From positions 52,899,236 through 52,963,235 of the forward strand of contig CM072515.1 in NCBI GenBank assembly GCA_036898135.1: a stretch of 64,000 nt of DNA, read 5' to 3'. Below the pieces are notes generated by a model that saw only the letters and a program-made list of their open reading frames with translations, had not been told where the DNA came from and did not search any database. Shown here piece by piece: positions 20,873 to 59,053 of this stretch (the first letter of the stretch is position 1; every line of letters begins with the position of its first letter). The DNA comes from Oncomelania hupensis (lineage: Eukaryota; Mollusca; Gastropoda; Littorinimorpha; Pomatiopsidae). A program made the translations under genes and the position numbers.

Positions 20873-21465
20873 ATTTATTGTGCATTCAAGAATGTTATAA
20901 AATGGACGATATGCTAGCTTCAATAAAATGTGTAACACTATTGTGTTCTGTCCTGTTCTTTTGGTACTGAACACGCAGATAAAACAGTGAAAATGGCGAA
21001 ATTTACTACTAGGATTATATAACTAAAATTATGTATAATAAATTTCGAAAATATATTTTTTTTTAAAAGAACATGATAAACTTACCCTGCTTTGCAATCG
21101 CACATGGCTTCGGAAATACACTCCTTTCTGATGTTGATCTCGATGACGAGTTTATGTGGGTCGGCAAGATTTCTATTCTGTAACATTAATTGCAGCTAGT
21201 ACTTCCACAGTTTCTGTTGATCCATCCTTGAAAACTCGGAACATCGTCGATGAACAGAGATTTGAATTTGTTCATCCCCCACTATAGCACAGTTTTTGAC
21301 AACGGTGTGAAGTTAGGGAGATACTGAATTTGGGATGCAATCGATGCTATCCTTCGCGCAAGCATCACTAATTGCCGCCATCTTGTCCACTTCATGTGAG
21401 GCCAGCTATCAGGCAGGCTGTGGTTGCTATGCTCTCACTGCGCATGCCCGCAAACCGGTACGCTC
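20201..21465. other. unassigned stretch with (CT)n at 20791-20868
   Basis: No further exon of the THAP-like gene could be identified. An A18 run near 20744 and a CT microsatellite are the only clear structures. Confidence 0.4.
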
Positions 21466-27990: not shown

Positions 27991-28080
27991 ATTCTCATCC
28001 TAGGTGACGCTGTTTTGCCGCTGCCGCTCTTTCGCTGAGGAAGGTACTAAGAACTTCGCCCGCATAAGTGACGAATGGTA

Positions 28081-32272: not shown

Positions 32273-32341
<69 letters not shown>

Positions 32342-34484
32342 TCTTGTTGTGGTAAGTAGTCGTAGGAGTAGTAGTGGTTGGCTTGTAACTCATGGAGAAA
32401 CACTTTAGCGAAATACGATTTTAGTATGCTGCGTTTTATCTTAATCTCGTCTTCCAGTAATCTGCCTACTCTCTCCAACACTCTTCAACATCTGCCTAGA
32501 GCGCATCATGTCAGATGCCCTTGCAGACCACGAAGTCACAGTCAGCATAGGGGGAAGAGCAATCTCCCACCTCCGTTTTGCGGATGACATTGATGGATTG
32601 GCTGGAGAGGAACAAGAACTTGAACAGCTGGTACAGAGGCTTGACACCACCTCCAGAGCATATGGAATGGAAATAAGTGCAGAGAAGACCAAAATGATGA
32701 CCAACAACACCCATGGCATAATCACGGACATCAAAGTCCAAGGCCAATCCCTCAACACAGTGCATAGCTTCAAATATTTAGGAGCCATTGTATCAGACAA
32801 TGGGTCCCGACAGCAAGTCATCTCCAGGATCGCACAAACAACTGCTGCCCTGGCGAGGTTGAAGCCCATTTGGAAGGACAGGACCATCAGTCTACATTCC
32901 AAGGTAAGGCTGCTGCGCTCCCTTGTCATCTCCATCTTCCTATATGCTTGCGAAACATGGACCCTCACAGCAGATCTCCAACGAAGAATACAAAGCATGG
33001 AGATGAGGTGCTACAGAAGACTTCTGGGCATTTCCTATACCCAGCACATCACCAACGACGAAGTCCGACAGACCATCACACAAGCCATTGGACAACACGA
33101 TGCCCTGCTCACAGTGGTGAAAAACTCCGATGGTATGGCCACGTCACCAGATCACCAGGTCTTGCAAGGACTATTCTGCAAGGCACAGTGCAAGGAGGTA
33201 GAAGAAGAGGGAGACCGAAAAAGAGGTTGGAGGACAACATTCGAGAATGGACTGGTTTGACACTGAGCGAAACAATCAGGGTTGCAGAGGACAGGGAAAG
33301 ATGGAGTACGCTGGTTAAACGATCATCTGTGGTGTTCTACGACCTCCGAGTTATGGGATAGGATAGGATCCAGTAGTAGTTCTTTAATATTAGTAGGGGA
33401 CTAAGATAATAGGCTGTAGTATGAGTGGTAGTTGTGGAAGTGGTGATCAGCAGTATTAGTAGTTTTGTTGAAATACCTATCTATTCAATAATTGTGGTAG
33501 TAGTGAGCGTAGTAACTGTGCTGTTTAGACAGTAAAATTATAAGATGGTTAAAAAAAAGGTCCAATAGAATTATTGATTAGACAGTGTGTTGTTGTTTGT
33601 TTGTTTGTTTGGTGTCTTTTTTTTTGGGGGGGGGGGGGGAGAAGAGGGGGGGGGAAGAATACAAGTAACACTATTAGTTGTAATAATTACTAGTTTGAGG
33701 ACCGAACAATTCGTTAAAATCTTGTATTTCTATTAATTTGTGCGGTGGTTGGAGCATTCGTTTGTGGAGCTCGGGGAGGGGGAGGTGGTAGGGGATGGGA
33801 GGTGGTCCAAGTATTTCCATTGTTTCTTACTTTTTTACATGTTGGTTGGTTTCGAAAAGTTTCCTACACAACCGCCACAGAAAAAGTAATTTTAAACGTT
33901 AGACACGGGTCTGCGTGCGCGCGTGCGTTCGTGTATGTTCAAGGGTGTTGTATTTGTGTGTATGCGTGGGTGTGGGTGTGGGTGTGTGTGCGCATGTGTG
34001 TGTGTATGTGTGGGTGGGTGTCTTTGAGTTTATGTGTGTCTTTTTCTTTCTTCCATCCTTGCTTTCTTTGTTCCTTCCTTCATTCCTGTCTCCTTTCTTT
34101 TTTATTTTTATTTTATTCTTCTGTGCTCATTGTTCAGCTCAAAGACAATCAAATACGTACTCTTGTATTGTGCTAATATTGGAAGGTGATATGTGCAAAT
34201 TAGCTGAGGATGATGACGTCGACGGTGCTGATGTTGACGACGATTATGATGACCCGATGATTGATACCGGTTCAAATATGTGGTCTTTGAACGCAGCTGA
34301 TATTCCTTCCTTTCTGTCTTTATTTTAAAACAAAATAACCGAGATTTTTAATATATAAGTTAATGATAAACGATGTTTGTTTCTACTCCAACCTGAACAT
34401 TGAAACTTGACAGTATTGATATTTGACTATAACACACAAACACACATACACGCACCTACACACACACGCACACACACACAAACG

Positions 34485-34517
<33 letters not shown>

Positions 34518-37513
34518 TTGTTTACACGGCGTTATTATGACTTTCATGAAACGGCAAATACGTTGCGTTGACAATGGGTCATATTTCGTCCCCCCTTTTT
34601 ATGTATTTTTAAATGTTCTAACGCTAACCCTAACCTTAATGGATCATTGGTTTGACGTCAAAACAACGAGGACTGTTAAAACAAGGTATGTAGATGTTCA
34701 ATAGTTTGTCCAAATAACGCCGTGAAAACAAGTCCACACACACACACATACACACACCCGCACACACACACACACACACACCCAACCGAGGTTACACAAT
34801 ATTATCAGGACTTTCCCAAAACGCCACATACGTTGTGCTGACAATGGGTCATATTTCGTCCCCATTTTAAAGTACTTTGCAGTGTTCCTAACCCTAACCC
34901 AGCCCTAACCCTAACGGATCATTGTTCTGACGTCAAAACAAGTAGGCTTGTCAATACAAGTTATGTAGATGTTCACTGATTTGTCCAGATAACGCTGTGT
35001 AAACAAGGACACCAAACCACCACACTCTTTCCTTCAGAGAAGAGGAGCTATTTTTGATAGAGACAAGAAACAGCAATGGTAGCCCAATAGAAAGTGACAT
35101 GTGAATGTGCAATGTACACGAGCACCACCACCGTAGAGCGTTCGCCTCATCCACCGACGACCCAGGTTCGAATCCCGTGGCGGACGAAATAAAAAGTGAC
35201 CATTTTTCACTGTCCATTTTAGCAGTATGATTGCTCTGGTGGTTCAGTGTTGATTTAGGTCCCTCTGGGATGGTTATTCCCGTCTGCCATACCGCCAATG
35301 GCGGGAGTAATGACGGCCTGCTAGCGCCAAAATCTGATAACTACAAATATCATGAAATAATTACAAATATCATGGGATAATTACAGTTGTCAAGGGATAA
35401 TTGCAACTATCATTGCAAAATTACAAATATCTTTGTGCTATCATGTTTAGTTTTCAATTTTGGCTCTAGCAATCCGCCGTCAAAACCGAAAATTGTAAAT
35501 TATAGAAAGGCGTGGCAAATACTGATAATTAGTAATGAACACTGTGGATTACCGGTATCTCTGTAACTTAAACAGAACGCGTGTTAATTTCAATTATCTC
35601 GTGATACTGGTAACTCTCTGTTTTGGCGCTAGTAGGCCTTCATAAGGTGTAGACATTAATCATTAATGTTCATTCAATCAAGCACAAGTACAGCTGAAAC
35701 GAGCAAGTGTGCGCTGTATTAACAATGACACCACCCCTTCCTTCTTCCTACAGGGCGGAAGAGCGGAGGAAGCGGGAGGCGGAGGAGGTTGCCCGTCGAC
35801 GCCAGGTGTTGGACATCGTCAACGACCCCATTCTCAGGAGGGTTAAGGACAAGAACGAGAAGCTGTACGTGCCCAAATACACCAAGGCGCCTGACAGCCG
35901 GCCCTGCGCCATCTGCTTCGATTATATTGGACCCTCCATCGCCCACTCTACCGTCAAGATGAAGCTAGACGAGCTCTTCGACGAGATGCGGGACAACGAC
36001 ATCAGGGTAAGTGGGGTCAAAGTCAAAGACAAAATGAATTTAAACTCAAGTGTTCCCAAACAAAATATGAGTTAACGTTCCTTTTCCGCATGATTATCCA
36101 GTGTGGGGTAACGAAACATTTTTCTTCATGGTCATTGAGATCAAGGTGATGTTTAAGGTCAGTGTCATGGTCAATTTCGGACTCTCAAGTAGAAAGAAGT
36201 TAAGATTTCTAGGTTAGACAAAGAAGTAGGTTACACGTAATGGCTAAATCAAGGTCGAAGTCTGATACTTGGAAACAAGCAATAACGAAGATAACAGGCT
36301 GAGTGTCACATAGAAGCGAAGGTCAGGGTCTAAATCACTGTCAAATATCAAAATGAAGATTGAGTAGGTCAAGGTCGGAGTCCGTCAGTACCGAAACCGC
36401 ACATTTCATGTGTTGCTAACAGCCAATACTCAAGAGTCGGAAGAATACCATTGAAGTTTTCTATGGGGGAAAAATTAGGGCTGTTCACTTCGCTACAGCC
36501 CTATAAGGTTAAGCTACGTTTTTCATGAGAAGAATCAAAAATTTGTAAATGGTCAGTCGGTATAAGATGACTGAAGATGCAAGCTGGGTGGCTTGAGTAA
36601 GCTACGCAACGCTATAAGCAGCAGTATATTTTTTGAGATAAATAGTTTTCTCAGTTTCTTCTGATCATATTCAAAGTATCATGATCAGTTTATATTGTCC
36701 CTGGATGATTGCAGATCGCGACGATCGAGTTCCAGCCTCGCGCCATCCACACACGTGGGAAGAACAGCAGCAACCGTTGGGTCATCACCGTCAACTCTCC
36801 GTTCGCCGTCAGCCAGCTGGATGGCAACACCATCACCTTCGGAAAACAGGTACGTAGGTTTTCTACAGATTATTCCCCGACTACCTCCAAGCGTAGCAAG
36901 AGTTCTTTGGTACCTGAACCGTTTACCTGGGGTGAAGCAGAAACTGGGTCCGGGAATGACGGGTGTTGTTGTAGTTGAGGTGATTGCTGTTGTTTTCTCG
37001 TAAGAATTAACTTTGTTGAATGACTTTTTAAGTGGTGGTTCAATTCACCAAGCATCGCCAAAGCGGCACGTTAAACAACCCGGTTATTGTGTCAAGGAGG
37101 TGGTTGATGGTGTTCAAATCAACCCTTTTACATAAAAGTGCATAAATCGATCAGAGCGGTTCAGCTGTCTAGGTTTGATTGTGCGCTTGAAGCTGAAAGT
37201 TGGAGTCTTGGGCGGCGTGAGTTGAGATTCTGATTTTGGCCAGGCCCTTGAGTAGCTCTTTGAGCTGAGAAGTGCTTTATATATGAACAATTAAGTTCGA
37301 TTTATTTCAGTGTGGTGTGTGTATGTGTGTGTTTGTGTGGTGTGTGTGTGGGTGTGTGTGTGTGTGTGTGTATGTGTGTGTGTGCAGAAGGTGACGCTGA
37401 AGGCCTATGATCAGGTGCTTGGTGGCGAGTTCGCGACGTTCACCAAGCAAACCAACTTTATGTCTCGCATGTTCCACCACGAGCCTGCAAGTGAGCAGTC
37501 TACGACCGCCTGA
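31094..37513 (+). CDS. five-exon gene, 300-residue protein of unknown family
   Basis: Exons: 31094-31285, 32007-32203, 35754-36006, 36715-36849 and 37388-37513 (stop TGA). All introns are GT-AG with fitting phases (0, 2, 0, 0). The start MPTASQYKILSKLGE follows a CA-rich stretch without an upstream ATG in frame. The N-terminal 130 residues are mixed. Residues about 105-155 are a highly charged helix (RYEEEQRIRAEERRKREAEE), probably coiled coil. The C-terminal 130 residues look like a compact alpha/beta domain (DSRPCAICFDYIG; RWVITVNSPFAVSQLDGNTI). No signal peptide or membrane segment. I do not recognise the family. Alternative 3' ends are possible because a donor-like GCAA|GTGAGC lies inside exon 5. 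Intron 2 (3.5 kb) contains a LINE, two MITEs, a SINE and a TIR element. Confidence 0.8.
31575..31710. repeat. (TATAT)n pentanucleotide repeat
   Basis: About 25 units of ATATT with few interruptions, in intron 1 of the five-exon gene. Confidence 0.95.
32263..32341. repeat. (GTA)n microsatellite
   Basis: About 26 GTA units, 60 bp downstream of the exon 2 splice donor. Confidence 0.95.
32461..33370 (+). pseudogene. non-LTR retrotransposon 3' part (copy 4) in intron 2
   Basis: Starts within the RT at the equivalent of SPTLFNIFLERIM and encodes LRFADDIDGLAGEEQ, GMEISAEKTKMM and FLYACETWTL. The frame is lost near 33120, where about eight bases are missing relative to the copy at 28081, and resumes with RRRGRPKKR. 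The tail is ATAGGATAGGAT. Inserted in sense orientation within the five-exon gene. Confidence 0.9.
33371..34516. other. intronic sequence with G-rich, GT and CA tracts
   Basis: Part of intron 2 of the five-exon gene. A G-rich tract lies near 33627-33655, GTGT-rich sequence near 33950-34030 and a (CA)n tract at about 34430-34515. No exon recognised. Confidence 0.6.
34517..34732. mobile_element. MITE with telomere-like core (copy 1)
   Basis: TIRs CTTGTTTACACGGCGTTATT (34517-34536) and AATAACGCCGTGAAAACAAG (34713-34732). The interior carries CTAACCCTAACCTTA (34624-34638). (CA)n flanks both sides. Confidence 0.75.
34786..35007. mobile_element. MITE with telomere-like core (copy 2)
   Basis: Tandem relative of the preceding element, about 270 bp further on. 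The right TIR is ATAACGCTGTGTAAACAAG (34989-35007) and the left TIR is degenerate. The core at 34887-34914 contains CCTAACCCTAACCC and CCCTAACCCTAACG. The shared segment TGACAATGGGTCATATTTCG confirms common origin. Confidence 0.7.
35125..35308 (+). mobile_element. SINE family A (copy 3)
   Basis: Head with GTAGAGCGTTCGCCTCATCC and B box GGTTCGAATCCC (35164-35175), then the family A body ending near GTCTGCCATACCGCCAATGG. Lies in intron 2 of the five-exon gene, directly before a TIR element. Confidence 0.85.
35311..35642. mobile_element. TGACGGCC-family TIR element (332 bp)
   Basis: Left end TGACGGCCTGCTAGCGCCAA, right end GGCGCTAGTAGGCCTTCA. The middle is partly deleted relative to the 425-bp copy (the segment after GCAATCCG). 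Intronic. Confidence 0.85.
37195..37300 (+). mobile_element. SINE family B tail
   Basis: AAGTTGGAGTCTTGGGCGGC, then GGCCCTTGAGTAGCTCTTTG and AAGTGCTTTATATATGAAC. Diverged, headless copy in intron 4 of the five-exon gene. Confidence 0.65.
37311..37384. repeat. (GT)n microsatellite forming the exon 5 acceptor
   Basis: The tract runs TGTGTGTGTGTG up to GCAG|AAG at 37387/37388. It takes the place of a normal polypyrimidine tract upstream of exon 5. Confidence 0.9.
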
Positions 37514-40958: not shown

Positions 40959-41930
40959 TATACAGGGTTCTTACACCTTCCAAGGGACAGAATTTAGGGC
41001 CTTTTTAGGGCCTTTTTAAGGCCAAAATAAATAAAAAAAAAGGGCCACCTTTCGCGCAATAAAAGAAGAAATTAAATCCTAAAAGGCACTACCCAACTCA
41101 ACTCGTCATACAACGTAGGTCAGAGTAGGGCACAAACTGGAAAATCTCTGGAGGGAAATCGAGATGCAGAGCATCTTTAGCCGCTTTGTCCACTGCAATA
41201 TTGCCGCGGATGCCCATGTGACCAGAAACCCACATAAAAACTATCTTTTTACCCTCATAAACAAGTTGTGTATGGAGGTCATGGATCTCTGCCAGAAAAG
41301 GGTGTGATATCTTTCTCGTGGAAAGAGCCTGGAGTGCTGACAGTGAATCGGACATGATTAAAAACGAGGTTCTTTTGGATTGATAAACTTGTTTCAGAGC
41401 TAGATGAATTGCCTTGAGCTCAGCTGTATAAACAGAACAAAAATCCTATATTTGTTCTCGCCATGACGAACCCGCATTTTAAATGTTTCATGGCTCAGCC
41501 AAGAGTCGTTAAATGTACACTTGCCCATCCTGGCATAACACTCAGGCGTCAATGATTCAATCACAACTCAAGATGAAGCGGAGCCGAACGTAACTCACAA
41601 CAACAAACACATCCGGGTACTGTCAAGGGATGTAACCGAAACGATGCTAGGGGGTACTCTCCCTTGAACAGAGCAGACGACAATTTAGCGTCGTACTCCG
41701 TGTTCGATTTCCACCCCCCAAAATTATATTTTTCCACCTTCTTTATTTTTGCTTCAGCTTCAAACCTTCGCTTTCATTTCTTCAACAGCTGTAAGTTCCA
41801 TTTTTAGGGGCTTTTAGGGCCTCTGGGTCTTTTCATCCGAAAATTAGGGGCTTTTAAGGGCCCTAAAATGAGGATCCAAAAATCAGGGGCTTTTAGTGGT
41901 TTTTAGGGATGCGTACGAACCGGCAAAGGG
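40959..41930. mobile_element. candidate hAT-like insertion containing LINE remains
   Basis: The left edge CAGGGTTCTTACACC and right edge GGATGCGTACGAACC are imperfectly inverted. Both subterminal regions repeat TTTTAGGGCC and AGGGGCTTTTA motifs. It appears to split a tRNA-type SINE. No transposase is present. Termini resemble hAT ends, but a matching target duplication was not identified. Confidence 0.35.
41098..41430 (-). pseudogene. RNase H domain of a non-LTR retrotransposon, fragment
   Basis: The minus-strand translation shows CSVYTAELKAIHLALKQVY, SDSLSALQALSTR, VFMWVSGHMGIRGN and AVDKAAKDA. These carry the Glu of TAEL, the Asp of SDS, the His/Gly signature and the terminal Asp of RNase HI as found in I/Jockey-group LINEs. 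The first catalytic Asp strand and the rest of the ORF are missing. Confidence 0.8.
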
Positions 41931-45817: not shown

Positions 45818-46802
45818 TCCTATCCTATCCTATCCTATCCTATCCTATCCTATCCCATCCTATCCTTGCCCGTAACTCGACTCGAAAGTCGTTGGGGCAC
45901 CACAGATGACCGTTTAGCCAACGTACTCCATCTTTCTCTGTCCTCAGCAATCCTCGTGGCTTCGCTCAGTGTCAAGCCAGTTCATTCTCGAATGTTGTCC
46001 TCCAACCTCTTTTTCTGTCTGCCTCTTCTTCTGCCACCCTGCAGGACGGTCTGTGCAAGGCCTTATGCTCTGGTGACGTGGCCATACCATCGAGGTTTCA
46101 ATTTCTTCACCACTGTGAACATTTCATCATGTTGTCCAATGGCTGGTGCGATGGTTTGTCGGACTTCGTCGTCGATGATGTGCTGGGTATAGGAAATTCC
46201 CAGAAGTCTTCTGTATCACCTCATCTCCCTGCTTTGTGTTCTTCGTTGTAGTTCTGCTAAGGAAGCGTATAGGAAGATGGAGATGACAAGGTAGCGCAGC
46301 AGCCTTACCTTGGAGTATACATAGACTGATTGTCCTGTCTTTCCAAATGGGCTTCAACCTTGTCAGAGCAGCATTGTTTGTTCGATCCTGGAGAGAACTT
46401 CCTATTGGGACCCATTGTTTGATACAATGGCTCCTAACTATTTGAAGCTTTGCACAGTGTTGAGGGAATGGCCTTGGACTTTGATGTCCGTGTCGATGCC
46501 ATTGGTGTTGTTGGTCATCATTTTGGTATTCTTTGCACTTATTTTCATTCCAAAAGTTTTGGAGGTGGCGTCAAGCCTCTGTACCAGCTGTTCAAGTTCT
46601 TGTTCTTCTACAGCCAAACCATCAATGTCATTCGCAAAACGGAGGTTAGAGATTGCTTTACCCCTATATTGACTGTGCCTTTGTGATCTGCAAGGGCATC
46701 AGACATGATGCGCTCTAGGAAGATATTAAAGAGTGTTGGAGAGAGGGGGCATCCTTGGCGCACGCCGATTGTTGTTCTGAACCAGTTCCCGATGGCGCTG
46801 TT
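45818..46802 (-). pseudogene. non-LTR retrotransposon, longest copy (copy 5)
   Basis: The minus-strand translation begins SAIGNWFRTTIGVRQGCPLS (RT motif with GxRQGxPLS), then LFNIFLERIMSDALADH, LRFANDIDGLA, FKYLGA-like and downstream regions with several frameshifts. It ends in about seven GGATA units at 45818-45860. The catalytic F-A-D-D reads F-A-N-D, so this copy is inactive irrespective of frameshifts. Confidence 0.85.
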
Positions 46803-47670
46803 CTACCACATTGTTACACAGCGTAGATGAGTTTGTGTGGCCTGTTCCCTCTTCAGAGGCTCGGCTACTCTGTATGTAACATTGTAACAAGGTATACTAC
46901 TGAAACTACCATTAGTGAAGTAAGTTTATTCAAAAACTAGCATCGAATGTACAGTGAAATGTATATACAAATGAAGAAAAGGTATGTATGTCTTTTATTT
47001 GGACAGGCACAACTACGTCACGAGCGCGCTAGCTCACAGGCAAGAAGCATAGGCGCAGGACGAGTAATTTGCCTGTGGTCAAAAGCCATTACATAAGGCC
47101 TAATCTCTAAATGTGATGAGGTGGTTTCATTCCCTGTGGTCACTGATTACCGGATGGCGTCAATGTCACCTGCACAAGACACAACACAGAATTTGGCTCA
47201 GTTAAAATCAGTCTAAAAAAAAATAAAAATAAACCTGCGATAGCAGACATACAGGTCTTAAGTAATAAGGAGAAACAGACATTAGAGACATCCCTTTCCT
47301 CAAGTCCAGCTTCATGAGGACAGCACCCATCTCTTTTCACTCGCTGCTTTACCTTCTCCAGTTCTATTTGTTCACGGTTACGGTTTTGTTTTTATCCCAT
47401 CCAAACCAAACTAGCGGTTTTGTTTTTATCCCATCCAAACCAAACTAGCGGTTTTGTTTTTATCCCATCCAAACCAAACTAACCAGTCTCATCTAGGCTA
47501 TAACCAGAATGATTGTTGCTTAATTTTTTCGAAACAGAATGTCTGCTTGAAGTTTAACCACCTTCTTGTCCCAATGCAGTTAAAGAAACCTCCGCGTCAG
47601 TAAGGGTTCAAATTCTGACATAGATGTTTGTATATATAGACTATAGTATAGAAAGAAAGTTTGAATGCTT
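46803..47670. other. unassigned, with SINE E fragment and short tandem repeat
   Basis: 47283-47375 resembles the body of the 5S-headed SINE (CCAGCTTCATGAGGACAGC, CTGCTTTACCTTCTCCAG). It is followed at once by a 34-bp tandem repeat. No exon seen. Confidence 0.5.
47381..47481. repeat. 34-bp tandem repeat, three units
   Basis: CGGTTTTGTTTTTATCCCAT plus 14 bases is repeated three times with essentially no divergence (starts 47381, 47415, 47449). Confidence 0.95.
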
Positions 47671-47774: not shown

Positions 47775-48049
47775 TTAACTACTGAAATACTTACGAGCCA
47801 GAGCCCGGTACCGACAAAGGCGAAGTTTGTGTGACAGCTGTGTGACTGTGGCCTGTTCCTCAGTGGCGTCCTGGTTCTCCTTCCATTGTTGCAGGCTGCG
47901 CACGCATCGCTCGCGAGCGTTGCCCGTGCTATCGGCCACTTGCTGAACTTGCTCTTGCGTCAGGCCCAGAAATAGTGCCAGACGCCGCCATTGCGACACC
48001 GCCTTCTCGTGTCGGGCGATACGTACGAACGCCTTGTGCAGAAGTGTCT
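47775..48049 (-). CDS. last exon: death domain 2
   Basis: Encodes 91 residues ending ALARKYFSS then TAA. Key pieces: AVSQWRRLALFLGLTQEQV, NARERCVRSLQQWKENQ and ATVTQLSHKLRLCRYRALA. The W-x-x-LA-x-x-LGL start and C-x-x-x-LxxW motif are those of a death domain. It follows the first one after only about 35 residues, so the two are tandem at the C-terminus. Confidence 0.85.
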
Positions 48050-51000
48050 CTGAAATACACCGAACCACAACACTGCAGGTTGAGATAATTCCATTTCCTT
48101 TCAGTCTTCTAAAGGAGATCTTCCTGCCAACGTGTTGGATGGATATTTGTGGACATTTGAGACTGTGTGTGGAAGAATAAGCGCAACACTTCACCCTAAA
48201 ATGTTGGAACAGATTGACGCGTTTTGAGTTCCTGGGAAAAAGCGCTTGTGCGGAAGCATTCAGCATTCATTACTAATTTTTTTAATTAGATAAAATGTTA
48301 GGCGTAGGCCAATATGGCAGTAACTCGTAAACTACTACGTTACTATACGTGTTTTAAACAGCTGGTGGATCTATGTAGACCCCCTAAACACTGACCTCGA
48401 GTACCGAGAGCGTGTGTCTTGCGGAAGCTGTGTTCCTTGTCTCTGACCTCCTCCACAAGGTCGTTACGACCCACTGCTGTCAGCGCTGTGCACAATACGT
48501 CAACCTGCACAAAAAAAAACGGTGCTAGTAAACGAATTGAAGTTTAACGTCTACATCCCAAGGAAGAGAGGTAGGTATTTAAATCAACACTGAACCACAA
48601 AAGCAATCATACTGCTAAGAGGGGCAGTGAAACGTGGCCACTTTTCTCTAGTCCTCCACGGGATTCGAACCTAGTATACTAGTACAGACAACGAGGCTAT
48701 TAGACTTCGGCATCTCTCACATTCAAATAAGGCGGCCACTGAGCTCGATGCCGTCGGTTGTACAGTCTCCACAGGTGAGTGCAGAAATGGCTGGTTAGGT
48801 CAATAATCCTGGATGCACACACTCTGGGACAAGGGAAAGTCGCCACCGGTTGCTGAGGCCTTCCCTCTGCATTGGAAGTGCTTGCAGCAAGACGACACAT
48901 GGACTACTACTTACCCTATCAAAGGCTTGGGGCAGTCGCTTGGACCATGTGACCAGGAGGTCGTAGACGGGTATCCACGGCGGGGATGACACGTTCTGAC
49001 GGAGGATTGCCTGTAGACGTGTACGACGCACGTTGAGGATTGGAGCCAACTTCAGCCAGTCATCTGCTGCCAGCTGTTCCGCCACGTACCGCAGTAGATC
49101 ACTTGTCACTGGACCTACACAGAAAGGACATAAAGGGCGTGATGGAGAGAACCAACAACGTTGAAAAGGTAGTAGAGGAAATATGATTTACAAAACACAC
49201 ACACACGTCACACACACACACACACGTCACACACACCTACACACACACACACACGCACACGCACACGCACCCGCATATATATAAGACATTCTAGATCTAA
49301 ATAACTTACCGTAAGATTTGAGGGCGACAGGAGCCTGATTCAACGGTCTAGGAGACTCGGGCTCGGGCTGTTGATGAAAACAAGAACGCGATATTTAAAT
49401 AACATTTAAACAGAAAAACCACTCATTTTTGTCAAGCACAGGCTACAAACTCTAACAAACATGAGAACTGCTCGATCAGGATAAATCAGCGATCCGCGGA
49501 ATTACACAATGAAATTGAAAATTTAAATATAATGTTACAGCAATAAGAACTTTCAGTGCCGCCTCAACATAACATTAAACAGCCCAGTCATTTTTATTTC
49601 TGTCTAACACAGTAGACAGACTGAAACAAAGACGCTTACTGCTCAACTAATTATTATTTTGAACTTAGAACAGACTGCATCCAATACCATGATTATTAAG
49701 GGAGGTAAATTGGAATACCCAGAGAAAACCCTCAGCGACCTGGAAAGTCTTATAATACCTAAAGTCATCCCTGTGGAGGTTGGAACCACAACTTTTTGCA
49801 TTGGAAGTACTGCTCTAACCAACAACAGGCCACACAACATAGATACTGGAGTACCCAGAGAAAACCCGGTTAGCCTCATGTATCCAAGTCGCCCAGACGG
49901 GAGATCGAACCCACATATTCTGCACTGGAAACTCTAACCCACTGCAGCGTCTGGCCACTCACCTTGGGAAGCTGCACCTGGAGCTCAGCCAAAAGATGTT
50001 TGCCTGTGACAAAACACAGAGGAACCTTACTGCCTTCATCGTTGTCGTCAGGTGCCAGGCGCTTGAACGGCCCTTTGTACGTCGAGGAGACCTGACGGAA
50101 CAAATCAACAGTCACACTAAATATAGAAGGTCAATATTCTTAATTCTCCTTGTTTTCATCCCTTGCCTCTTCTTCTTCCATTTGGTCCCATTAGGCATTT
50201 TCTCTTTCTCTTCTTCTCCATTCTTCGTTACCTTTTCATCTCTGACTATTGTGCCTTTCTGTCTTTTTTTCTCCGTCTTCTTCCTCCCCTAGAAGTTCAA
50301 TAGTGTAGGGTTTACAAAAGCAGTGTGGAAAGAGGCTTCAGCCTGGGCGTGACGTCACAGCTAGCTCTGGCTCGCCTTGCCTCACGCTTCACTTTCGATT
50401 CAACACTTCCTGTTGATGATTATGATCTGTCATCGCTAAACCATCTTTATAGAGTAAGTTAAAGTTGTAAAGATTGTCACGGACTTGAGTCAATTCAACT
50501 GTTGCATCATGACACGGCAAAGCAGAATGCTTACCTGTACAAATCCTCGGTAATTGTCGAAGGCCTTTTGGGCGAAACTGTCAATCTCGTGCAGGTTAAG
50601 CCTGACCTTGAAGGGAATGGCGTTGTGGTATGCACAGCGAGCAGGGAACTTTTCATCCGTGGGCTCCAGGTTGCCACGGAAACTCAGCTCCAGCAATTGG
50701 CCTGGAAAGTTCATAACAACAAACAAAAAAGTCAGCCTTCTTCTTCTGCCGCTTCTCATGTCGATCAAATATATTTGTTCACAACAGAGGTAAGCATTTA
50801 TAACAGGATGACCGGCTTCTTTAATGACCCGCTGATGGGACGCGAGTGGCGCGAATCACCGGATAGAGAGTCGTTACAGTAAAGTCAATTCTTAATACAT
50901 GTATCACTATCCGTACACTAAGCGAGCACTTTGTCCACGGAACCACTCTGCTAGCAACATCACATTACATCCATCTCTACCCTGCATGAACATGTCCCAA

Positions 51001-52022
51001 ACTTACCTTCGCGTAATTTAACTTCAGAGGTGGGTCTCGGGCCTTGGTTGTAGCCGTCGTCTGCCAGGGTGCGCAGCGTGCGCTCGAGGTAAGGGGCGCT
51101 GGCGCACGTGAGGATCGCGTGAGAGGGTGTGAGTGCCATCTGTCGGAGAACGAGGTAGACGGGATGGTGAGCGGCCATGTATTCTAAGGTGTTGGCCACG
51201 CGTTCTATTGCACCGGTGGACAGACCTGTGTGCGTTCTCAACAGTATCAGTCTGAAACAGCAAACCAGGGAACTGAATAATTCTGTAAACAATCTTAGGA
51301 GTCAAAGCACATTGATTATTTGACCAAAATGAACTAATTAAAATGACTTCATTGTTTGAGTCAGATGCTTCTGAGACTCTTCCTGGGCTGAACATAATCA
51401 ACGGGCTTTGTGTTTGACAAAGTGAAAACTCCTTGGCCAATCCCAAGAGCCTCTCTCCTTGCCAATGTAAGAGAGGGAAATTATGTAGTTAGGCCCTGGG
51501 TCACCCAAAGTTGTTTGTAGATTATAGTCACATGACACTTTCGCATATAGGTGACTACTGGACCGATTTATACTGACACCAGCGGGCCAGTTGTTGGTAA
51601 AGGGGAAAATAATATGATCACACGTTGACCAATCCGGGATTCGAACCAGCGACCTTTCGGGGTCACCCAATTATTGCGTAGTTCTTATATAGCGCTTCAC
51701 CAGCTCAAATAATTGCTCAAGGCAATGGCCGAAATCAGGATCTAACTCAAGCCGCTCAAGGCGCCAATTTTCTGCTTGATGCGCTACAATGAGGAAGTAA
51801 GAAAGGCCCAGGAAGATGCCTTTAGTGTGTGATGTTAGTTATCGGTGTCTGCCCCAGCAGGAGCTGAGGTTGAGGGACATTATTCATAGCGTATTTCCGG
51901 CAACTTCTATTTGAGTAGCTTTATTCGCTTCCCTATACAATAAATATTTTGTTGTATACATATCATCTTCGTGTCTTACATGATCATGACGACGGCGGCG
52001 ATAGTGATGATGATAATGATAG

Positions 52023-52087
<65 letters not shown>

Positions 52088-55000
52088 ACCTGTCTACGGT
52101 TTGTTTGAGCTGGAAGACTACAACGTCTTTCTTTTTGGAGGTCTGAAACTCAACGTCCGCCATCTTGTTCCAAGAACCGCCATTCTTACGGAACAACAAA
52201 TGTATTTCGTCTTCATGGACTTCTTCTGAAAAGAAAAATAAATTTTAAAAATGAATAAATGGAGTGGAAATGATTCCCGCTCTCATTGAATTGGTTCTGA
52301 GAAAAGTGAGGCACATAAATAATGTTCTTCGAAACTCGGTTAAATAGGATTCGAGAGTTCCATTCACTGCAGTAAAGGTAAAGGTTTGTCCCATAACCGT
52401 TCTGTCTTATAGGGAGAGAGGGATTAGTGACCTCCCTTTTGTCATGGCCAGCTTTGTGAGGACGAACTCATTTCTTCAACCTTGCTGCTTTATCTTTCCC
52501 GGTTTATTCACTGCACCCTTATCTACAATTTAACATTAAATAATTAAATAACTTTTCATGTTAAAAATGCGCAAGTCTCATGAGAGTACAAAGGAGTAAT
52601 ATATACAGTCCAGTCCAGTGAAAAATATATACTGGTTATAGTGCACAATTCCTAGTCAAGAACTGTGACGACAGAGACCCAACTAATTAATCGAAAGCCT
52701 GTGAATGAAAAGAATGAATATGGGTATGATGCAATCAAATATAAATGACGTAGATCGATATAATGTCATATAATATTTCGAGCAGACCTTGTTTTATACT
52801 TCTCTTTAAACTTGTAGCGTAAAATGAATACTTATTTTTCCCAATATTACGATCAATAATAAACTTTAAATATTTATTGATTGTTGAAATCAGTATTATC
52901 AAGTGTTCGTGACACCTAGCAACTGAGGACTGTTGCCCGTGGAACCTCTTTTCTGCGTTGGTAACAAAAGTTGCGAACTGAGTCCGTAAGCCCCAAGCGG
53001 CACGGATTTGTGTTCGTAGAGGAAAAAAGTGGATTTATGCGAGTAGTTACATTACATTATATGGTTATTGATTTAGGTCCAGCGGACTCTTCCGAGCCAA
53101 ATCAGGACTAAAAAATCAAGACCACAACTTCACTGAAAGAGGACTCGCCCCTGATCCGCATAAAAGATCTGCCGAAAAAACCCTAGTGGTAACCCTGAAC
53201 GCATTCCACCAGCCGGTCACTTTACAATAAAGACATCTCACGCAGGGGACGCTGGGTCTATACTCTAATTTATAAAACCATAATAGAATACAAACATCAT
53301 TATAAAATATCAACAAAACACATACATAGAAAATGCCTACATTGCTAAATGATAACATCATAGGAAGCCCCAGTGACCATCTGGCAGAAAGCGTTCAATA
53401 TTCCCAAGCTGATCCAACCGACCTCACACACAAATGAGGAGTTTTGTTCCCGAAGAGTTTTCAAGAAAAAAGGTAGGTGATTGGTCTGGCGAAGAAGAAG
53501 GTAGTATAGTAGATTGATAGAACAGAGCAGGAATGAGAAAGAGCAAAGGAGAAAGACAGAGACAGTGGGAATTTAAAGCACTACATTTCCAGAAAGTGGG
53601 GATTCTATTTATACTGAAACCCCGGTACCCCCACGGGGGGAGAGGGAAGGGTGGGATGCGAGTAGTTACGGCTTGACAACAAACCTCATACACCATGTGG
53701 GTGTGAAAACTATTCGTTCGCATTCTGCGGATGTTTTGAGTACAAGAGAATCCTATCAATATGGATGTCAACGAAGAGACTCTAAGGGGATTTTTCATTA
53801 TTCATTAGTCTTCACCGCTCGCCGTTCACCGTTTATCCTTCATCGGTCTTCAGCCTCTTCTATTGGTTCTTCACTATTTATTAGCTGAGTCATAAACTGA
53901 TACTTGCCTGTCAACGAAATATCTCAAATTCAACTGTATCGCTGACAGGCAGTGTCTGAATTGTTAATCATTTATTTACTAAGTAACACGTCATAGTTTT
54001 ATCGAATCGCCTCTTTAATAAAATGTAATGTTGAAAAGTTAAGAACAATAGATTCATATCTTTTTTGTATGAAAAAGCAGGTAATGGAATAGACTGCATT
54101 CTCTTATTTATTTTTTTTAGGGCATTGTTATTTGCCCCATCGCCGATAAACTATAAGGCCAACACAAAAACAAGTCTGTTTACAATATTAAAATAGAGAA
54201 TTTAATACGGTCGGTAGGTCGGATTTCTTTCTTTTCGTTTTATTTTCTAAACCTTTTTCACCTTGGGTGCGATTTTTTGGCCTTTCTTCTTTTTTTCTCA
54301 GACGATCCCAAAAGAAAACTTCAGGTCGGGCCCAAACGAACAATAAGTGCTGCCGAATAAAGACCCGATTAGAATTTTCCTAGAATATAATTAATTATTT
54401 GTTATGCTTCCTCTGTGATCCTTAAAGGAGTTTATTTGTTCGAGGAGTTACTATAGAAAACACAAACATGAATAAACACGTATATGTCGTATCGAAATCG
54501 TGAAATTGACGAATTCGTGAAACCGACAGCTGTTATTAATTCAGCTGTCGATTTCACGAATTTAGCGATTTCACGATTTCGTTACGACATATACATGGCG
54601 TCTTCAGTATCATCCTTGACATCGCCTTCAGCAGTTCTGTGAACTGGTAAGTGCGCTGTACGAAAACAATTATTCTGTGATAATTATAATCATATTTGCA
54701 ATTTTGTTGGTATTTACTACGGAGTTAGGGTGGTGAGCCAAAAACAATATTCAGGTTTTACTACACAATGCAGTTGTATTGTGTTGTGTTGTGTTTTGTC
54801 GTGTCGTGTCGTGTTTTCACTAGCCTGTTGTCATAGTGAAGGAGAAGAAGGGCCTGGCTGTTGCGGGTCTCTCACTTCCTCCACCTCTCTCCCCACCCTC
54901 CACTGGTGTATTCCGTTGCACCGCGCTGGACGCAGGCCTTTGGGGTCGGGCTGCGGGGTTTGGCGGGCAGGGGACAGAGAAGGTGAGAGGCTTGAGGAGT

Positions 55001-58000
55001 TGCATCCCTTGGCTGTAGCAGTGGACGATGGGGCTGGAGGACATGAGGTGGTCACAGGCCACTTCACCACGCACGCGCAGATCAGTCACCACGCTCTGGT
55101 CCAACAGCTGCACCTTTTCAGGGGAGACAAAAGGTTGCGTAATACACGGAAAAGTAATAGTACTAACCTCCCCGTCTCGCCTTCTTCACGTGTCCAAGGG
55201 AGACGAAAATGTTAAACGACACTGGAGTAAATTATCTTCCCTTAAGAAAGGGTGCCACAGTAATAGATAATGTCACCATCAAATCGTACTATATAGTTAA
55301 GTCAACAAATCCCTATGGGTGATAGGCAATTACATTACATTACATGATTATTGCTTTAGGTCCAGCGGACTCTTCCGAGCCAAATGAGGACCAGACAACC
55401 CCTGATCCGCATAAAAGATCTGCTGAAACAACCCTAGAAGTAAAACTGAAGGCACTCCACCAGCCAGTCACTTTACAATAAAGACATCCCACGCAAGGGA
55501 CGCTGAGGCTATACTCTAATTTATCGAACCCCCGTTTACAAAAACAAAATAGAATACAAACATCGTTATAAAATAACATCAAAACACATACATATAAAAT
55601 GCCTACATTGCTAAATAATAACATCATAGGAAGCCCTAGTGACCACCTGGCAGAAAGCGTCCAATATTCCCAAGCTGATCAAACAGACCTCACACACAAA
55701 TAAGGAGTCTTGTCCCGGAAGAGTTTTCAAGAAAAAAGGTAGGTGACTGGTCTAGCGAAGAAGAAGATAGTATAGCAGATTGATAGAACAGAGCAGGAAT
55801 GAGAAAGAACAAATGTGAAAGACAGCGACAGTGGGAATTTAAAGCACTACATTTCCAGAAAGTGGGGATACTATTTATACTGAAACCCCCGGCACCCCAA
55901 CGGGGAAGCGGGGGGGTGTGGGGTGATAGGCAAGGCAAGGCAGACTGCGGTGAGGACGACTTTGATGATGATGATGAGGAGGAGGAGGAGAAAAAGTAGG
56001 AGGAGGAATAGCTTGATGATGACGACAAAGAAGAATACACACGTTGTACACGTACAGATATAGGAAGAACGGCCACTGTCTTGACCACGTTGTTTGGCCA
56101 CGACACTGTCACCCTGGAATCTGCTGACGACATTGTTTTGCCACCGTGACGACTGAGGCGAATGACGTCACGTTTCAGGCGTAGCACCACGCAAAATGTG
56201 CCCAACTCTTTCACCCTCGCTTCCACGAACTTGTGTTCCTGTAGACAAAGAGAGTAAACTCCTTCGGATGAGAGTATAAACCGAGGCCTAGTCTGCGAAC
56301 GAACGCATTCCATTGCACAGGCTTTAAAAAAAATCCCGACGCTCATGTCCTAGGCGGGTGAGTGCTAGCTAAACAAATACATCCAGGAAGCGCCTTGAGC
56401 AGCCCTTGAGCTGGAAAAGCGCTATATGAGAACGATTAAATACAACTGATGTTACATACTGATTTTATTAATTTGTATTTTTGTAAACTTGTAACCTACA
56501 ATTTCATTTTTAAATATAAATATACCAACTAAATCTTGTGCGAAATGGCCAAAATAAACATTGAATGCCCATGGTCCATATTATTTTATTGTAAATTCTC
56601 ACTCTGATACGCAAGGCGTGACGTAATTCTTACCCTGATGTCGTCAAAGCTGACGTCTGATGTAGGGACATCCCGCCATGCACTAGTGCCGAGAATGCGC
56701 ATGCGTACAGCTGGCTCTCTTCCGGGGCTGGTGCGAGGAGCACAGTGCGGCAAACACACGGATAGAAAGGGTACAAATGTCTGTAAGAAAAAGAAGAAAA
56801 CAGCGATTATTTAAAGGGAAGAAGAAGAAATGGACAAGACTCCTTCATTGGACTAGTCATTGATGAATGTTGAAAGTACGTCATTTTGGGTGAGCTTCAG
56901 CAGAATTTGGCATGCTGGTAATATAATTGTGTGAATAGCCTAGAAATTAGTGAGTAAAGTTCAAAACTAAAAACAACCAGCAGGCCTACATTCTATTTCA
57001 AGGCATGATTATTCCATTAGGCTCTGAGCCCTATCCCGCGTTAATTAAGCGTTCAGCCTACAAGTGTGAGGCCATCCCGACCTGGTTGGCGTCGCCATAC
57101 TGACGCCCGGGTGCCAGGTGCACGATGTTGCTGACCAGTTCCTCGTTGTCGGAGAGAGGGATGATGATGGAGGCGTGCGGAACGCGCGTGACTTCAAGGT
57201 CGTCATGACCCAGGCTGCCCTTTGATCCACAACGAACCACGCACCCTAGCCCCGTATCCCAGTCTCCAGGGTCAAGGCTGAAGCTGTGGTGTCGAAAATC
57301 AATCAGTTAGATAATCATGCGGTCACTCATCTAGTCAATCATACAAAAATTCTAAGTGAGTAAATCCGTCATTATTAATGATAATTGATAGTTGATAAGT
57401 AATCTATCAGTCGATTGACAAATCTATCTATACAATAACAACAAGATGGCAAGTCATTCAATTGTATTTCCAGAGAAACACACACCAGCTTAAAATTAGC
57501 ATTTTCAAAAGTGTTAATTTTCTTAGCGGTGTTTAACTCGACGTTATTCTAAAGAAGCAAACTAAAAACTCGGAGTGATGAGCCACTACCTGAACTATCT
57601 GCAAGCAAAAAAATTATTAAAAATCCGTTCGACCAGTTTTGAGATATAACGCAAGATGTGTTTAGAAAATACATGTAATGAACTACAGCTACCTTGATCT
57701 TTGAGAAAGTTCAAAGATGAATTACATAAAATGTGTATCAATGGGTAAAGTATCTACATTGTGAAAATAATTGAAAACCAATCCAGTCCTTCTGGAGAAA
57801 AGCAAAAAAAAAAATAATAATAATAATAAAAAAAGAATTTTCAACAAAACATTAAAATTTAGACCGACGGACCGACCGATTTTTACCGACACACCCGATT
57901 GCTACTTATTAACATGCAATGATTTAAAATACCCATATACCAAAAATCAACAAACTCGCTTGAGCAGTTTTTGAGATACAGAGAAAGAGGTTTTTAGCAA

Positions 58001-59053
58001 CAAAGTGACTCCAACGACCTTGACCTTTGCGGTCGAGCATAAGATTGCACATGAGACTGGCAAATCCCTGTGAATTTTGGTCAAAACCTGTTCATAGCAT
58101 TAAATTGTTGAGATATGGCGAGCAAAGGACGACGAGTGGATAGACAGACGGACAGGCAGCCAGCGCTGTGGTGATGTTTTGTCTGGTAGTGTTACAGGGC
58201 AATGCGTACAAAAATGTCTTGTCAAAACTACATGCAAAGACAAAGGTAAAAATGCAGTGACGTTTCAGCACTCACATAAGCCTTGTCCAGCTGGACGGTT
58301 TGCCCATGTCCATGTCTGGAGAGTCAGGGATGGGACTCTCGTGAACCACATGCACGTCCTGGAATACTCTCTGGGACGCCACTGATGAGCCCTTCCTCGT
58401 GACATCTATATACCTCTCGTCATCTTCTTCTCCTTCTACGTCATTTTGTTCAGTTTGCGAAATATCCTTCTCAAGCTGGCTGTCAATAGTGTTTTGTTCG
58501 TCGCCATTGTTTATATCCATGTTTTCAGCTTCTTTGTCACCGCTCTGGTAAAACGAAGCTGCAGGATCGTTCTGAGAATGCACTATACTTGTTCTTTGTT
58601 CGCCCAAACTCATTGTGTCTGTCTGTTCGGCAACGCTTTGCTGTAGGCCTATGTTTGGAGCAGAGCCGACGTTGAATGCATCACGTCCGCTCTGTGCAAT
58701 AGTACGCATATCGCCATATTCAGTGTCCTGGTCGCCATCTTGCCCGTTCGTCTCTAGTTCTTGGCTTCGTAGGGAGTCCGTTCCAGTGTGTTGGAGCTGG
58801 GCTTCCGCTTCATGTTTCTGCCTCGCTTCCTGTGCTGCATAAAACTGTTCAGCAGCCTCCCCGGCAACTTCCTTAGCTGCCGCAGCCGCCAGTTCTGCCT
58901 CCATCATCTCGGCTTCAGCTTCTGCCAGTTCCTGCGCTTTGGCCTGCATCGCATGACAGGCGCGTGCCACCGCCGCACGTGCTTCTTCTTCTTCACGTGC
59001 AAACCACTCGCGCTCTTCCGCATGATGCTCTTCTGGGTGCGAATTTTCGCGTC
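47775..59053 (-). CDS. ZU5-ZU5-UPA protein with tandem death domains (PIDD1/UNC5-like class), 5' end missing
   Basis: Thirteen exons, all GT-AG with compatible phases, in order: 59053-58276, 57283-57082, 56780-56634, 56238-56056, 55113-54876, 52225-52090, 51251-51007, 50701-50535, 50091-49963, 49367-49310, 49114-48915, 48504-48396, 48049-47775 (stop TAA). Together they encode about 954 residues. Order of regions: acidic Ala/Glu-rich segment, ZU5-A, ZU5-B, UPA-like domain, two death domains. Proteins with ZU5-UPA-death modules (UNC5, UNC5CL, PIDD1, ankyrins) act as receptors or scaffolds, the last domains recruiting partners in apoptosis or NF-kB signalling. No membrane segment is seen in the recovered part, so a cytosolic scaffold is likely. 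The first exon found opens with an acceptor, so upstream exons are missing. No frameshift or stop in 2.87 kb of joined exons argues for an active gene. Assignment to PIDD or UNC5CL is not secure. Confidence 0.88.
48396..49367 (-). CDS. three exons: linker and death domain 1
   Basis: Exons 49367-49310 (Pro-rich linker PEPESPRPLNQAP), 49114-48915 and 48504-48396. The fold is read from SDLLRYVAEQLAADDWLKLA, VYDLLVTWSKRLPQA and VDVLCTALTAVGRNDLVEEV. This is the six-helix death-domain pattern with its W-x-x-L-A core, the W in helix 4-5 and the final ALxxxGRxDL. Splice phases agree across all three exons. Confidence 0.85.
48534..48678 (-). mobile_element. SINE family A (copy 5, partial)
   Basis: Body and reversed B box (GGATTCGAACC at about 48661) are present. 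The A box part is degraded and the head end is missing. Lies in the intron before the exon at 48504. Confidence 0.75.
49680..49958 (-). mobile_element. tRNA-derived SINE, family D (copy 2)
   Basis: Head at the high-coordinate end: CCAGACGCTGCAGTGGGTTA then GGGTTCGATCTCCC (49899-49912 reversed). The body follows with two GGTTTTCTCTGGGTA-type motifs (reversed AATACCCAGAGAAAACC). Its head starts about five bases past the splice donor of the exon ending at 49963. Confidence 0.8.
49963..51251 (-). CDS. three exons: UPA-like domain
   Basis: Exons 51251-51007, 50701-50535 and 50091-49963. They encode RVANTLEYMAAHHPVYLVLR, EGQLLELSFRGNLEP, AIPFKVRLNLHEIDSF and NYRGFVQVSSTYKGPFKRLA. The L-E-L-S-F-x-G-N-L...F-K-V-R core and position between ZU5 and death domains match UPA domains of UNC5, PIDD1 and ankyrins. 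A family D SINE begins within a few bases of the last donor. Confidence 0.75.
51500..51666 (-). mobile_element. SINE family C (copy 2)
   Basis: Minus-strand counterpart of the element at 8868: GGTTCGAATCCCGGATTGGT (reversed), CCCGCTGGTGTCAGTATAAA and TAGTCACCTATATGCGAAAG. Intronic in the death-domain gene. Confidence 0.85.
51678..51790 (-). mobile_element. SINE family B tail
   Basis: Reversed it reads GGCGCCTTGAGCGGCTTGAG, then GCCTTGAGCAATTATTTGAG and GGTGAAGCGCTATATAAGAA. Headless, next to the family C SINE. Confidence 0.75.
52009..52088. repeat. (GAT)n microsatellite at a splice donor
   Basis: About 24 GAT units that, on the minus strand, begin at base 4 of the intron following the exon 52225-52090. 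Confidence 0.95.
52090..55113 (-). CDS. two exons: ZU5 domain B
   Basis: Exons 55113-54876 and 52225-52090. It starts in the preceding exon (GGKTMSSADSRVTVSW), continues ACDHLMSSSPIVHCYSQGM and LLKPLTFSVPCP, then a Pro/Gly-rich linker, and ends LFRKNGGSWNKMADVEF, DVVVFQLKQTV. The chosen donor (GGAA|GTGAGA) fits the phase of the next exon; reading on would give 18 more residues and a stop. The second exon's donor, CAG|GTAATC, opens directly into an (ATC)n tract. No HFS motif. Confidence 0.8.
52376..52515 (-). mobile_element. SINE family E body fragment
   Basis: AAGGTAAAGGTTTGTCCCAT, GTGACCTCCCTTTTGTCATG and CTGCTTTATCTTTCCCGG correspond to the non-5S part of the elements at 27425 and 61258. 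The 5S-like head is missing. Confidence 0.6.
53051..53655 (-). mobile_element. (TGTAA)-tailed retroposon, full length (copy B)
   Basis: Same organisation as the copy at 44522, flanked by ATGCGAGTAGTTAC (53037-53050 and 53656-53669). Inserted in an intron of the death-domain gene, in the gene's own orientation. Confidence 0.9.
53670..54875. other. intronic sequence, no exon seen
   Basis: Intron of the death-domain gene. Only the hairpin at 54480-54594 and GTGTT repeats near 54780-54820 stand out. Confidence 0.5.
54480..54594. mobile_element. near-perfect 52-bp-arm palindrome
   Basis: Arms TATATGTCGTATCGAAATCG... and the inverse ending CGTTACGACATATA differ at only a few positions, with a nine-base TTATTAATT loop. 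Both termini share CGTTACGACATATA with 12545-12558, so it is a small foldback family. Confidence 0.8.
55330..55920 (-). mobile_element. (TGTAA)-tailed retroposon, full length (copy C)
   Basis: Same family as 44522 and 53051, flanked by GGGTGATAGGCAA (55317-55329 and 55921-55933). A TATA-like TATAAATAG (reversed, near 55872) lies roughly 45 bp inside the 5' end. Confidence 0.9.
56056..57283 (-). CDS. three exons: ZU5 domain A
   Basis: Exons 57283-57082, 56780-56634 and 56238-56056. Conserved ZU5 pattern: ELVSNIVHLAPGRQYGDANQ, TFVPFLSVCLPHCAPRT, ILGTSAWRDVPTS and ELGTFCVVLRLKRDVI. At the position where PIDD1 and UNC5CL have the HFS autocleavage triad this protein has TFC. The first of the three exons has an unusual donor, CAG|GTCGGG. 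An alternative donor GTGTAC a few bases beyond the chosen GTACGT in the last exon would add two residues. Confidence 0.85.
56250..56440 (+). mobile_element. SINE family B, internally deleted
   Basis: Contains CTCCTTCGGATGAGAGTATA, the middle body and the tail GCGCCTTGAGCAGCCCTTGA, AAAGCGCTATATGAGAACGA. The tRNA head and about 130 bp of body are missing. It begins about a dozen bases from the acceptor of the exon starting at 56238. Confidence 0.8.
57595..58160 (-). repeat. dispersed repeat G (copy 3)
   Basis: Reversed it reads CTGTCCGTCTGTCTATCCAC, AAAGGTCAAGGTCGTTGGAG, TCACTTTGTTGC and TATCTCAAAAACTGC, matching copies at 24865 and 37575. Intronic in the death-domain gene. Confidence 0.55.
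58276..59053 (-). CDS. exon: Ala/Glu-rich N-terminal region
   Basis: Encodes about 259 residues. A first third rich in Ala, Glu and Lys (AREEEEARAAVARACHAM; EAEAEMMEAELAAAAAKEV) is likely helical or coiled coil. A long acidic Ser/Asp/Gln-rich linker without folded-domain character follows. The acceptor is CTTGTGTTTCAG; the donor AT|GTGAGT leaves two bases, matching the one-base start of the next exon. The first two bases complete a codon from an unseen upstream exon. Confidence 0.85.

What the first reader, a model, noticed from the sequence alone, without database searches (positions are those of the whole stretch)
47775..59053. Gene with two ZU5 domains, a UPA-like domain and tandem death domains
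Thirteen exons with matching phases join into about 954 residues ending in two consecutive death domains. Known ZU5-UPA-death proteins (UNC5, UNC5CL, PIDD1, ankyrins) carry a single death domain. Two in tandem at the C-terminus, with an Ala/Glu-rich acidic N-terminus instead of LRRs, ankyrin repeats or an ectodomain, would be an uncommon layout. The recovered protein could be a lineage-specific death-fold scaffold.
Basis: partly seen in the sequence, partly recalled or inferred. Interest (0 to 1): 0.75.

Follow-up and report, generated by a model that had tools for sequence, protein, structure and literature searches.

The report
Snail scaffold with two death domains
A snail-type genome carries what looks like an intact gene for an ankyrin-like scaffold protein ending in two different death domains (protein-binding modules known from cell-death and immune signalling); relatives in other sea snails, abalones and sea slugs have the same layout, so it looks real, an apparently undescribed variant close to the poorly understood DTHD1 protein.

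Summary
The 13 exons join as described (954 aa). Pfam scores both C-terminal death domains above cut-off on their own (35.0 and 41.5 bits), and 9 of 9 gastropod homologues carry both. The predicted fold of one homologue best matches ankyrin-B ZU5-ZU5-UPA-DD, with a second death fold behind it. Homologues corrected the model: a 317-aa first coding exon lies beyond the window, one exon is 51 nt longer (GC donor), and the C-terminus is a 23-nt exon at 47169-47147. Full model: 15 exons, 1290 aa. NCBI names 2 of 9 homologues 'death domain-containing protein 1-like'. New here: (i) a diverged collinear paralogue in the same genome seems to have only the first death domain; (ii) DD2 sits almost wholly on one symmetric phase 1-1 exon whose skipping keeps frame; (iii) the two domains are unlike: among solved structures DD1 is nearest PIDD1's, DD2 nearest FADD's. 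Best reading: a DTHD1-type cytosolic scaffold with an added FADD-like death domain; kinship with vertebrate DTHD1 was not tested directly.

The parts
58276..59053 (-).
   Evidence: 17-33% identical to the 8 homologues that have it
57082..57283 (-). Exon 3, first half of ZU5-1
56634..56780 (-). Exon 4, second half of ZU5-1 (contains the invariant PHC.PR....GRE stretch)
56056..56238 (-). Exon 5, end of ZU5-1 and start of ZU5-2
54825..55113 (-). Exon 6, ZU5-2; extended from 54876 to 54825 with a GC donor (CAG|GCTAGT)
   Evidence: homologue alignment
52090..52225 (-). Exon 7, later part of ZU5-2
51007..51251 (-). Exon 8, ZU5-2/UPA junction and first part of UPA
50535..50701 (-). Exon 9, UPA
   Evidence: UPA fold by structure of homologue P0003
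49963..50091 (-). Exon 10, end of UPA
49310..49367 (-). Exon 11, Pro-rich linker (PEPESPRPL), 47-79% identical to homologues
48915..49114 (-). Exon 12, most of death domain 1
   Evidence: Pfam Death 35.0 bits for DD1
48396..48504 (-). Exon 13, end of death domain 1 and linker
47795..48049 (-). Exon 14, nearly all of death domain 2 in one symmetric phase 1-1 exon of 255 nt; skipping it keeps frame with exon 15
   Evidence: Pfam Death 42.4 bits with corrected C-terminus
47147..47169 (-). Exon 15, terminal 23-nt exon encoding (R)DIDAIR-stop
   Evidence: scan for the conserved terminus: score 22, next best 14 (a strict pattern had found none)
47775..47794 (-).

Best explanation
The gene encodes a cytosolic scaffold of the DTHD1 (death domain-containing protein 1) type, 1290 aa: a Ser/Pro-rich then Ala/Glu-rich N-terminus, an ankyrin-like ZU5-ZU5-UPA platform, and two unlike C-terminal death domains. 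Proposed mechanism (inferred, on its own about 0.3): the ZU5-ZU5-UPA block docks a fixed partner, and the two death domains recruit or oligomerise with two different death-domain partners, DD1 through a PIDD1-like and DD2 through a FADD-like surface. DD2 sits on a symmetric, skippable exon, so a single-DD form by splicing is possible. By analogy with human DTHD1 the likeliest place of action is the motile cilium or sperm flagellum. Shown here: exon structure, domain content, conservation across gastropods, a paralogue with one DD found, exon symmetry. Inferred: orthology with vertebrate DTHD1, cytosolic and ciliary location, binding partners, alternative splicing. The confidence given is for the anatomy and family type, not for the mechanism.
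Confidence: 0.72

Rival explanations
1. It is a PIDD1 orthologue that has lost its LRRs: a caspase-2 (PIDDosome) or NF-kB scaffold activated by ZU5 autoproteolysis.
For: Same ZU5-ZU5-UPA-DD order (PIDD1 layout recalled); DD1 is nearest PIDD1's DD among solved structures by sequence (E 1.7e-4).
Against: No LRRs even with the upstream exon. No HFS, SFS or RFS anywhere in this protein; at the ZU5-2 end RFS occurs only in the 3 Haliotis sequences. PIDD1 has no second DD (recalled).
Confidence: 0.08
2. It is a MACC1/SH3BP4-type endocytic adaptor (ZU5, SH3, two DDs).
For: MACC1 also ends in two death domains after a ZU5 (PMC11585957, passages). Weak SH3BP4_C Pfam matches at the DD1 end, all below cut-off (E 0.057 for DD1 alone and 2.5 for the 954-aa protein; 0.1 for P0003 and 0.077 for P0004).
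Against: No SH3 hit in ours or in 9 homologues. Two ZU5s rather than one. DD2 is nearest FADD among solved structures.
Confidence: 0.07
3. The tandem is a duplication of one DTHD1-type death domain and both copies do the same job (avidity for one partner). This can hold together with DTHD1 kinship.
For: Both are Pfam Death and adjacent; the DD1 and DD2 profiles do match each other (hhalign E 3e-4, probability 39%, 16% identity).
Against: Each domain is 36-77% identical between species but the two share only 16%. Nearest solved relatives differ (PIDD1 versus FADD). Exon structure differs: DD1 over exons 12-13, DD2 almost wholly on exon 14.
Confidence: 0.2
4. Two separate genes were joined by the model: a single-DD gene and a downstream DD exon.
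For: Exon 14 is a self-contained 255-nt module and the C12 paralogue ends after DD1.
Against: 9 of 9 homologues, from three gastropod subclasses, carry both DDs in one predicted protein joined by an alignable linker. Phases match. The intron between exons 13 and 14 is only 346 nt (coordinates).
Confidence: 0.03

Closest known systems
DTHD1 (death domain-containing protein 1)
   Same: NCBI names 2 of 9 homologues DTHD1-like; ZU5-ZU5 plus C-terminal DD layout (layout of human DTHD1 recalled)
   Different: Human DTHD1 was treated as having one DD: construct 047 DTHD1_DD is not among the tandem-domain numbers given in the passages read of PMC8564539. The gastropod protein has a second, FADD-like DD. 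Direct sequence comparison not done.
Ankyrin ZU5-ZU5-UPA-DD module (ANK1/2/3)
   Same: Best structural and sequence match for ZU5-ZU5-UPA and, in 4d8o, DD1
   Different: No ankyrin repeats found; an extra DD; spectrin binding not tested
PIDD1
   Same: ZU5-ZU5-UPA-DD order (recalled); DD1 nearest PIDD1 DD among solved structures
   Different: No LRRs, no HFS motif, extra DD
MACC1 / SH3BP4
   Same: MACC1: ZU5 plus two C-terminal death domains and a disordered N-terminus (PMC11585957, passages); two DDs in SH3BP4 recalled
   Different: MACC1 has an SH3; no SH3 found here; two ZU5s here
UNC5 / UNC5CL
   Different: No receptor domains found; two ZU5s; two DDs

Membership tests
DTHD1 family | Specific full-length sequence relationship to vertebrate DTHD1 | not tested
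   No vertebrate sequence was retrieved; only NCBI's name on P0002 and P0009
DTHD1 family | ZU5-ZU5(-UPA) followed by C-terminal death domain, no LRR/ankyrin/ectodomain | tested here: met
   (layout of vertebrate DTHD1 recalled)
DTHD1 family | Single death domain | tested here: not met
   Two DDs here and in 9 of 9 homologues; in the same-genome C12 paralogue one was found. Whether a single DD is truly defining is open.
PIDD1 | N-terminal leucine-rich repeats | tested here: not met
   None by Pfam in the 1290-aa model including the upstream exon
PIDD1 | HFS autoproteolytic sites at ZU5 ends | tested here: not met
   No [HSR]FS in this protein; motif recalled, related cleavage paper PMC3210808 seen only as the start of its abstract
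MACC1/SH3BP4 | SH3 domain between ZU5 and death domains | tested here: not met
   No SH3 Pfam hit
MACC1/SH3BP4 | Two C-terminal death domains | tested here: met
Ankyrin | Ankyrin repeats | tested here: not met
   None by Pfam
Ankyrin | ZU5-ZU5-UPA-DD supramodule fold | tested here: met
UNC5/UNC5CL | Single ZU5 and, for UNC5, a receptor ectodomain | tested here: not met
   Two ZU5s; no receptor domains by Pfam
Death domain (Pfam PF00531) | Score above curated cut-off, twice | tested here: met
   35.0 and 41.5 bits vs 22.6

The most novel reading that the evidence does not exclude
Gastropods carry a two-headed death-fold adaptor: an ankyrin-like ZU5-ZU5-UPA platform with a PIDD1-type and a FADD-type death domain in series, the second on a cassette exon acquired as a symmetric module and skippable by splicing, letting one scaffold bridge two normally separate death-domain assemblies (caspase-2-type and FADD-type), perhaps at the motile cilium.
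Probability: 0.25. Interest if true: 0.62.

Novelty: new variant of a known kind. Interest (0 to 1): 0.42.

Why it matters
DTHD1 is a little-studied human protein recently reported in motile cilia (PMC12310455), whose function is not established. A conserved gastropod form with an added, unlike death domain, beside a paralogue in the same genome in which only one was found, gives a natural comparison for what the death domain does and suggests a route (a symmetric exon) by which death-fold adaptors gain or lose a second head. If the two heads bind different partners, it would be a scaffold joining signalling layers that are separate in vertebrates.

Tried and rejected
Rejected: (1) LRRs or ankyrin repeats hidden outside the window. 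The upstream exon was found; it is Ser/Pro-rich with no Pfam match over cut-off. (2) The GTGAGA donor at 54876: it fits the phase but drops a segment conserved in 9 of 9 homologues. (3) Integrase_1, bDLD3, RRM_PARP14_3 and other weak Pfam matches: all below their cut-offs.

Led nowhere: the first AlphaFold run on P0002 with 4 sequences (pLDDT 36.1). The alignment-based protein search returned only two already known relatives. A scan for RFX X-boxes (pattern recalled) in 3 kb upstream found none; shuffles expect 0.02 strict and 0.18 relaxed, so it has little power. phmmer of our single sequence against PDB gave nothing significant (best E 0.099); only the family profile did. A near source of DD2 in the genome: among the 8 death-domain loci fetched, the best DD2-profile score outside the gene itself was 20.0 bits (L003) against 142.2 for itself. 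Whole-genome ZU5 search: 22 places, 12 of them on C16, none in this gene; not followed. Papers PMC5359545 and PMC8195603 (passages) added nothing on DTHD1's domain layout.

Literature: none of the titles and abstract openings listed describes this protein. Listed of found: 20 of 25, 9 of 10, 30 of 119, 40 of 97, 4 of 4, 15 of 46, 12 of 3,923, 15 of 7,550, 10 of 978. Open-licence PMC only, so absence is weak.
Full report
WHAT WAS CHECKED. The finding lists a minus-strand gene at 59053-47775. I read the strand and its frames and rebuilt the exons from their splice contexts: 13 exons, all phases matching, 954 residues, one stop. Pfam gives two Death stretches, 35.0 and 41.5 bits when each is scored alone against a cut-off of 22.6. 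ZU5 was only sub-threshold in this sequence (14.3 bits, cut-off 21), and a six-frame ZU5 search of the whole genome listed 22 places, none in this gene.

HOMOLOGUES. Protein searches returned nine relatives, all gastropod: Littorina saxatilis, Babylonia areolata, Nucella lapillus and Batillaria attramentaria, then three Haliotis and two Elysia (9 of 1509 candidates at E <= 1, the first four included). Lineages looked up for four of them give three subclasses, Caenogastropoda, Vetigastropoda and Heterobranchia. Over the core (649-718 aligned residues) P0001 to P0009 are 62, 60, 61, 55, 41, 41, 40, 40 and 40% identical to ours; the three Haliotis are 90-95% alike and the two Elysia 79%, so these are fewer than nine independent witnesses. 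Nine of nine have two Death stretches; four of nine pass the ZU5 cut-off (P0004-P0007). Two of nine bear the NCBI name 'death domain-containing protein 1-like'; the others are 'hypothetical' or 'uncharacterized' in the NCBI or nr name shown, and UniRef calls three 'Death domain-containing protein'. By domain, identity to ours is: linker 47-79%, DD1 47-77%, ZU5-1 42-65%, DD2 36-73%, ZU5-2 35-55%, UPA 31-57%, N-terminal exons 17-33% where present. The genome is therefore gastropod and, among these, nearest the caenogastropods; its name was not given.

CORRECTED GENE MODEL. The homologues showed three errors. (ii) The exon ending at 54876 continues 51 nt to 54825, where a GC donor (CAG|GCTAGT) joins in phase 1; 9 of 9 homologues have the corresponding RP..A(R/K) segment. 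(iii) The stop at 47775 probably lies in an intron: after 47795 comes GTAAGT, and although a strict pattern found nothing, a scored scan for the conserved terminus found one clear terminal exon, 47169-47147, encoding (R)DIDAIR-stop (score 22, next 14). The full model has 15 exons, 1290 residues and one stop.

PARALOGUE AND EXON LOGIC. A genome search with the core gave 16 pieces: 12 of this gene, two weak ones in order on contig C12 (37% identity, E 0.002; 38%, E 0.074) and two at chance level (E 8-9). In 50 kb fetched there, tblastn with the family gave pieces in the same order and strand: ZU5-1 (best E 0.001), ZU5-2 (1.9e-7), UPA (4e-4), DD (4e-8), among many low-complexity hits. I joined only its death-domain exons, not a whole gene. 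The domain spans three exons and ends in a stop 28 residues after the Pfam stretch; Pfam scores one Death stretch, 34.4 bits. It fits the DD1 profile (90 bits) and not the DD2 profile (13 bits), and no frame in the 50 kb, including some 9.4 kb downstream, matched DD2 better than E 1.5. In the window's gene DD2 sits almost wholly on exon 14, 255 nt, phase 1 on both sides; joining exon 13 to 15 keeps the frame. So DD2 behaves as a cassette, gained in one paralogue or lost in the other; which cannot be told without an outgroup. The DD1 and DD2 profiles match only weakly (hhalign E 3e-4, probability 39%, 16% identity), against a recent internal duplication. No close source of DD2 appeared among the 8 death-domain loci fetched from this genome (best 20.0 bits).

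WHAT IT IS AND HOW IT MAY WORK. Best reading: a DTHD1-type cytosolic scaffold with an added FADD-like death domain. The ankyrin-like ZU5-ZU5-UPA block would dock a partner; the two death domains would each recruit or oligomerise with their own partner. Human DTHD1 was reported in wild-type motile respiratory cilia and reduced or missing in cilia of DNAH5-mutant patients (PMC12310455, abstract and passages) and is listed among hub genes with DNAH7, CCDC113, SPEF2 and SPAG17 in nasal epithelium (PMC9340151, table passage). In an interaction screen DTHD1_DD gave signals with ANK2, MYD88, IRAK2, CASP10, CASP12 and PYDC2 domains, a spread that suggests low specificity (PMC8564539, passages). A ciliary role for the snail protein is inference only; a scan for RFX X-boxes upstream found none.

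KNOWN OR NEW. MACC1 also has an SH3, and none was found here. PIDD1 membership fails on LRRs and on the HFS motif. DTHD1 membership could not be tested directly: no vertebrate DTHD1 sequence was retrieved. The layout ZU5-ZU5-UPA-DD-DD therefore looks like a new variant of a known kind, present in three gastropod subclasses as predictions in public databases, and not described in the titles and abstract openings listed by my searches.

LIMITS. No RNA data; homologues are themselves predictions; the GC donor and the terminal 23-nt exon rest on conservation; UPA rests on structure alone; nearest-relative statements for DD1 and DD2 hold among solved structures only.

Noticed in passing
G000 contig C12, 17436000-17485999 (L021-L025): Diverged collinear paralogue of the window's gene with ZU5-ZU5-UPA pieces and one death domain ending in its own stop; possibly the closer DTHD1 orthologue.
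   Followed up: partly
window 28004-28897 (+), 32445-33257 (+), 21430-22119 (-), 46063-46698 (-): LINE-like reverse-transcriptase fragments recur through the window; 28004-28897 has a sub-threshold RVT_1 match, the others were only seen by eye to share its sequence.
   Followed up: partly
window 41101-41445 (-): RNase H domain fragment over Pfam cut-off (41.1 bits), probably of a retroelement.
   Followed up: no
window 17262-17675, 32007-32285, 35698-36072 (+): Open frames that look like coding exons of a plus-strand neighbour gene; no Pfam match.
   Followed up: partly
window 36965-37060 (+): ARAGORN tRNA-Glu(ctc), 96 nt, possibly intron-containing or a tRNA-like repeat.
   Followed up: no
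G000 contig C16, about 6.8-7.3 Mb and 43.3-44.8 Mb: 12 of the 22 ZU5 matches in the genome lie on C16, 4 and 7 of them in these two stretches, most in long open frames; suggests local expansion of another ZU5 gene family.
   Followed up: no
P0005-P0007 (Haliotis), end of ZU5-2: RFS where PIDD1 is recalled to have its second HFS cleavage site; not at that place in the other six homologues or in ours.
   Followed up: no
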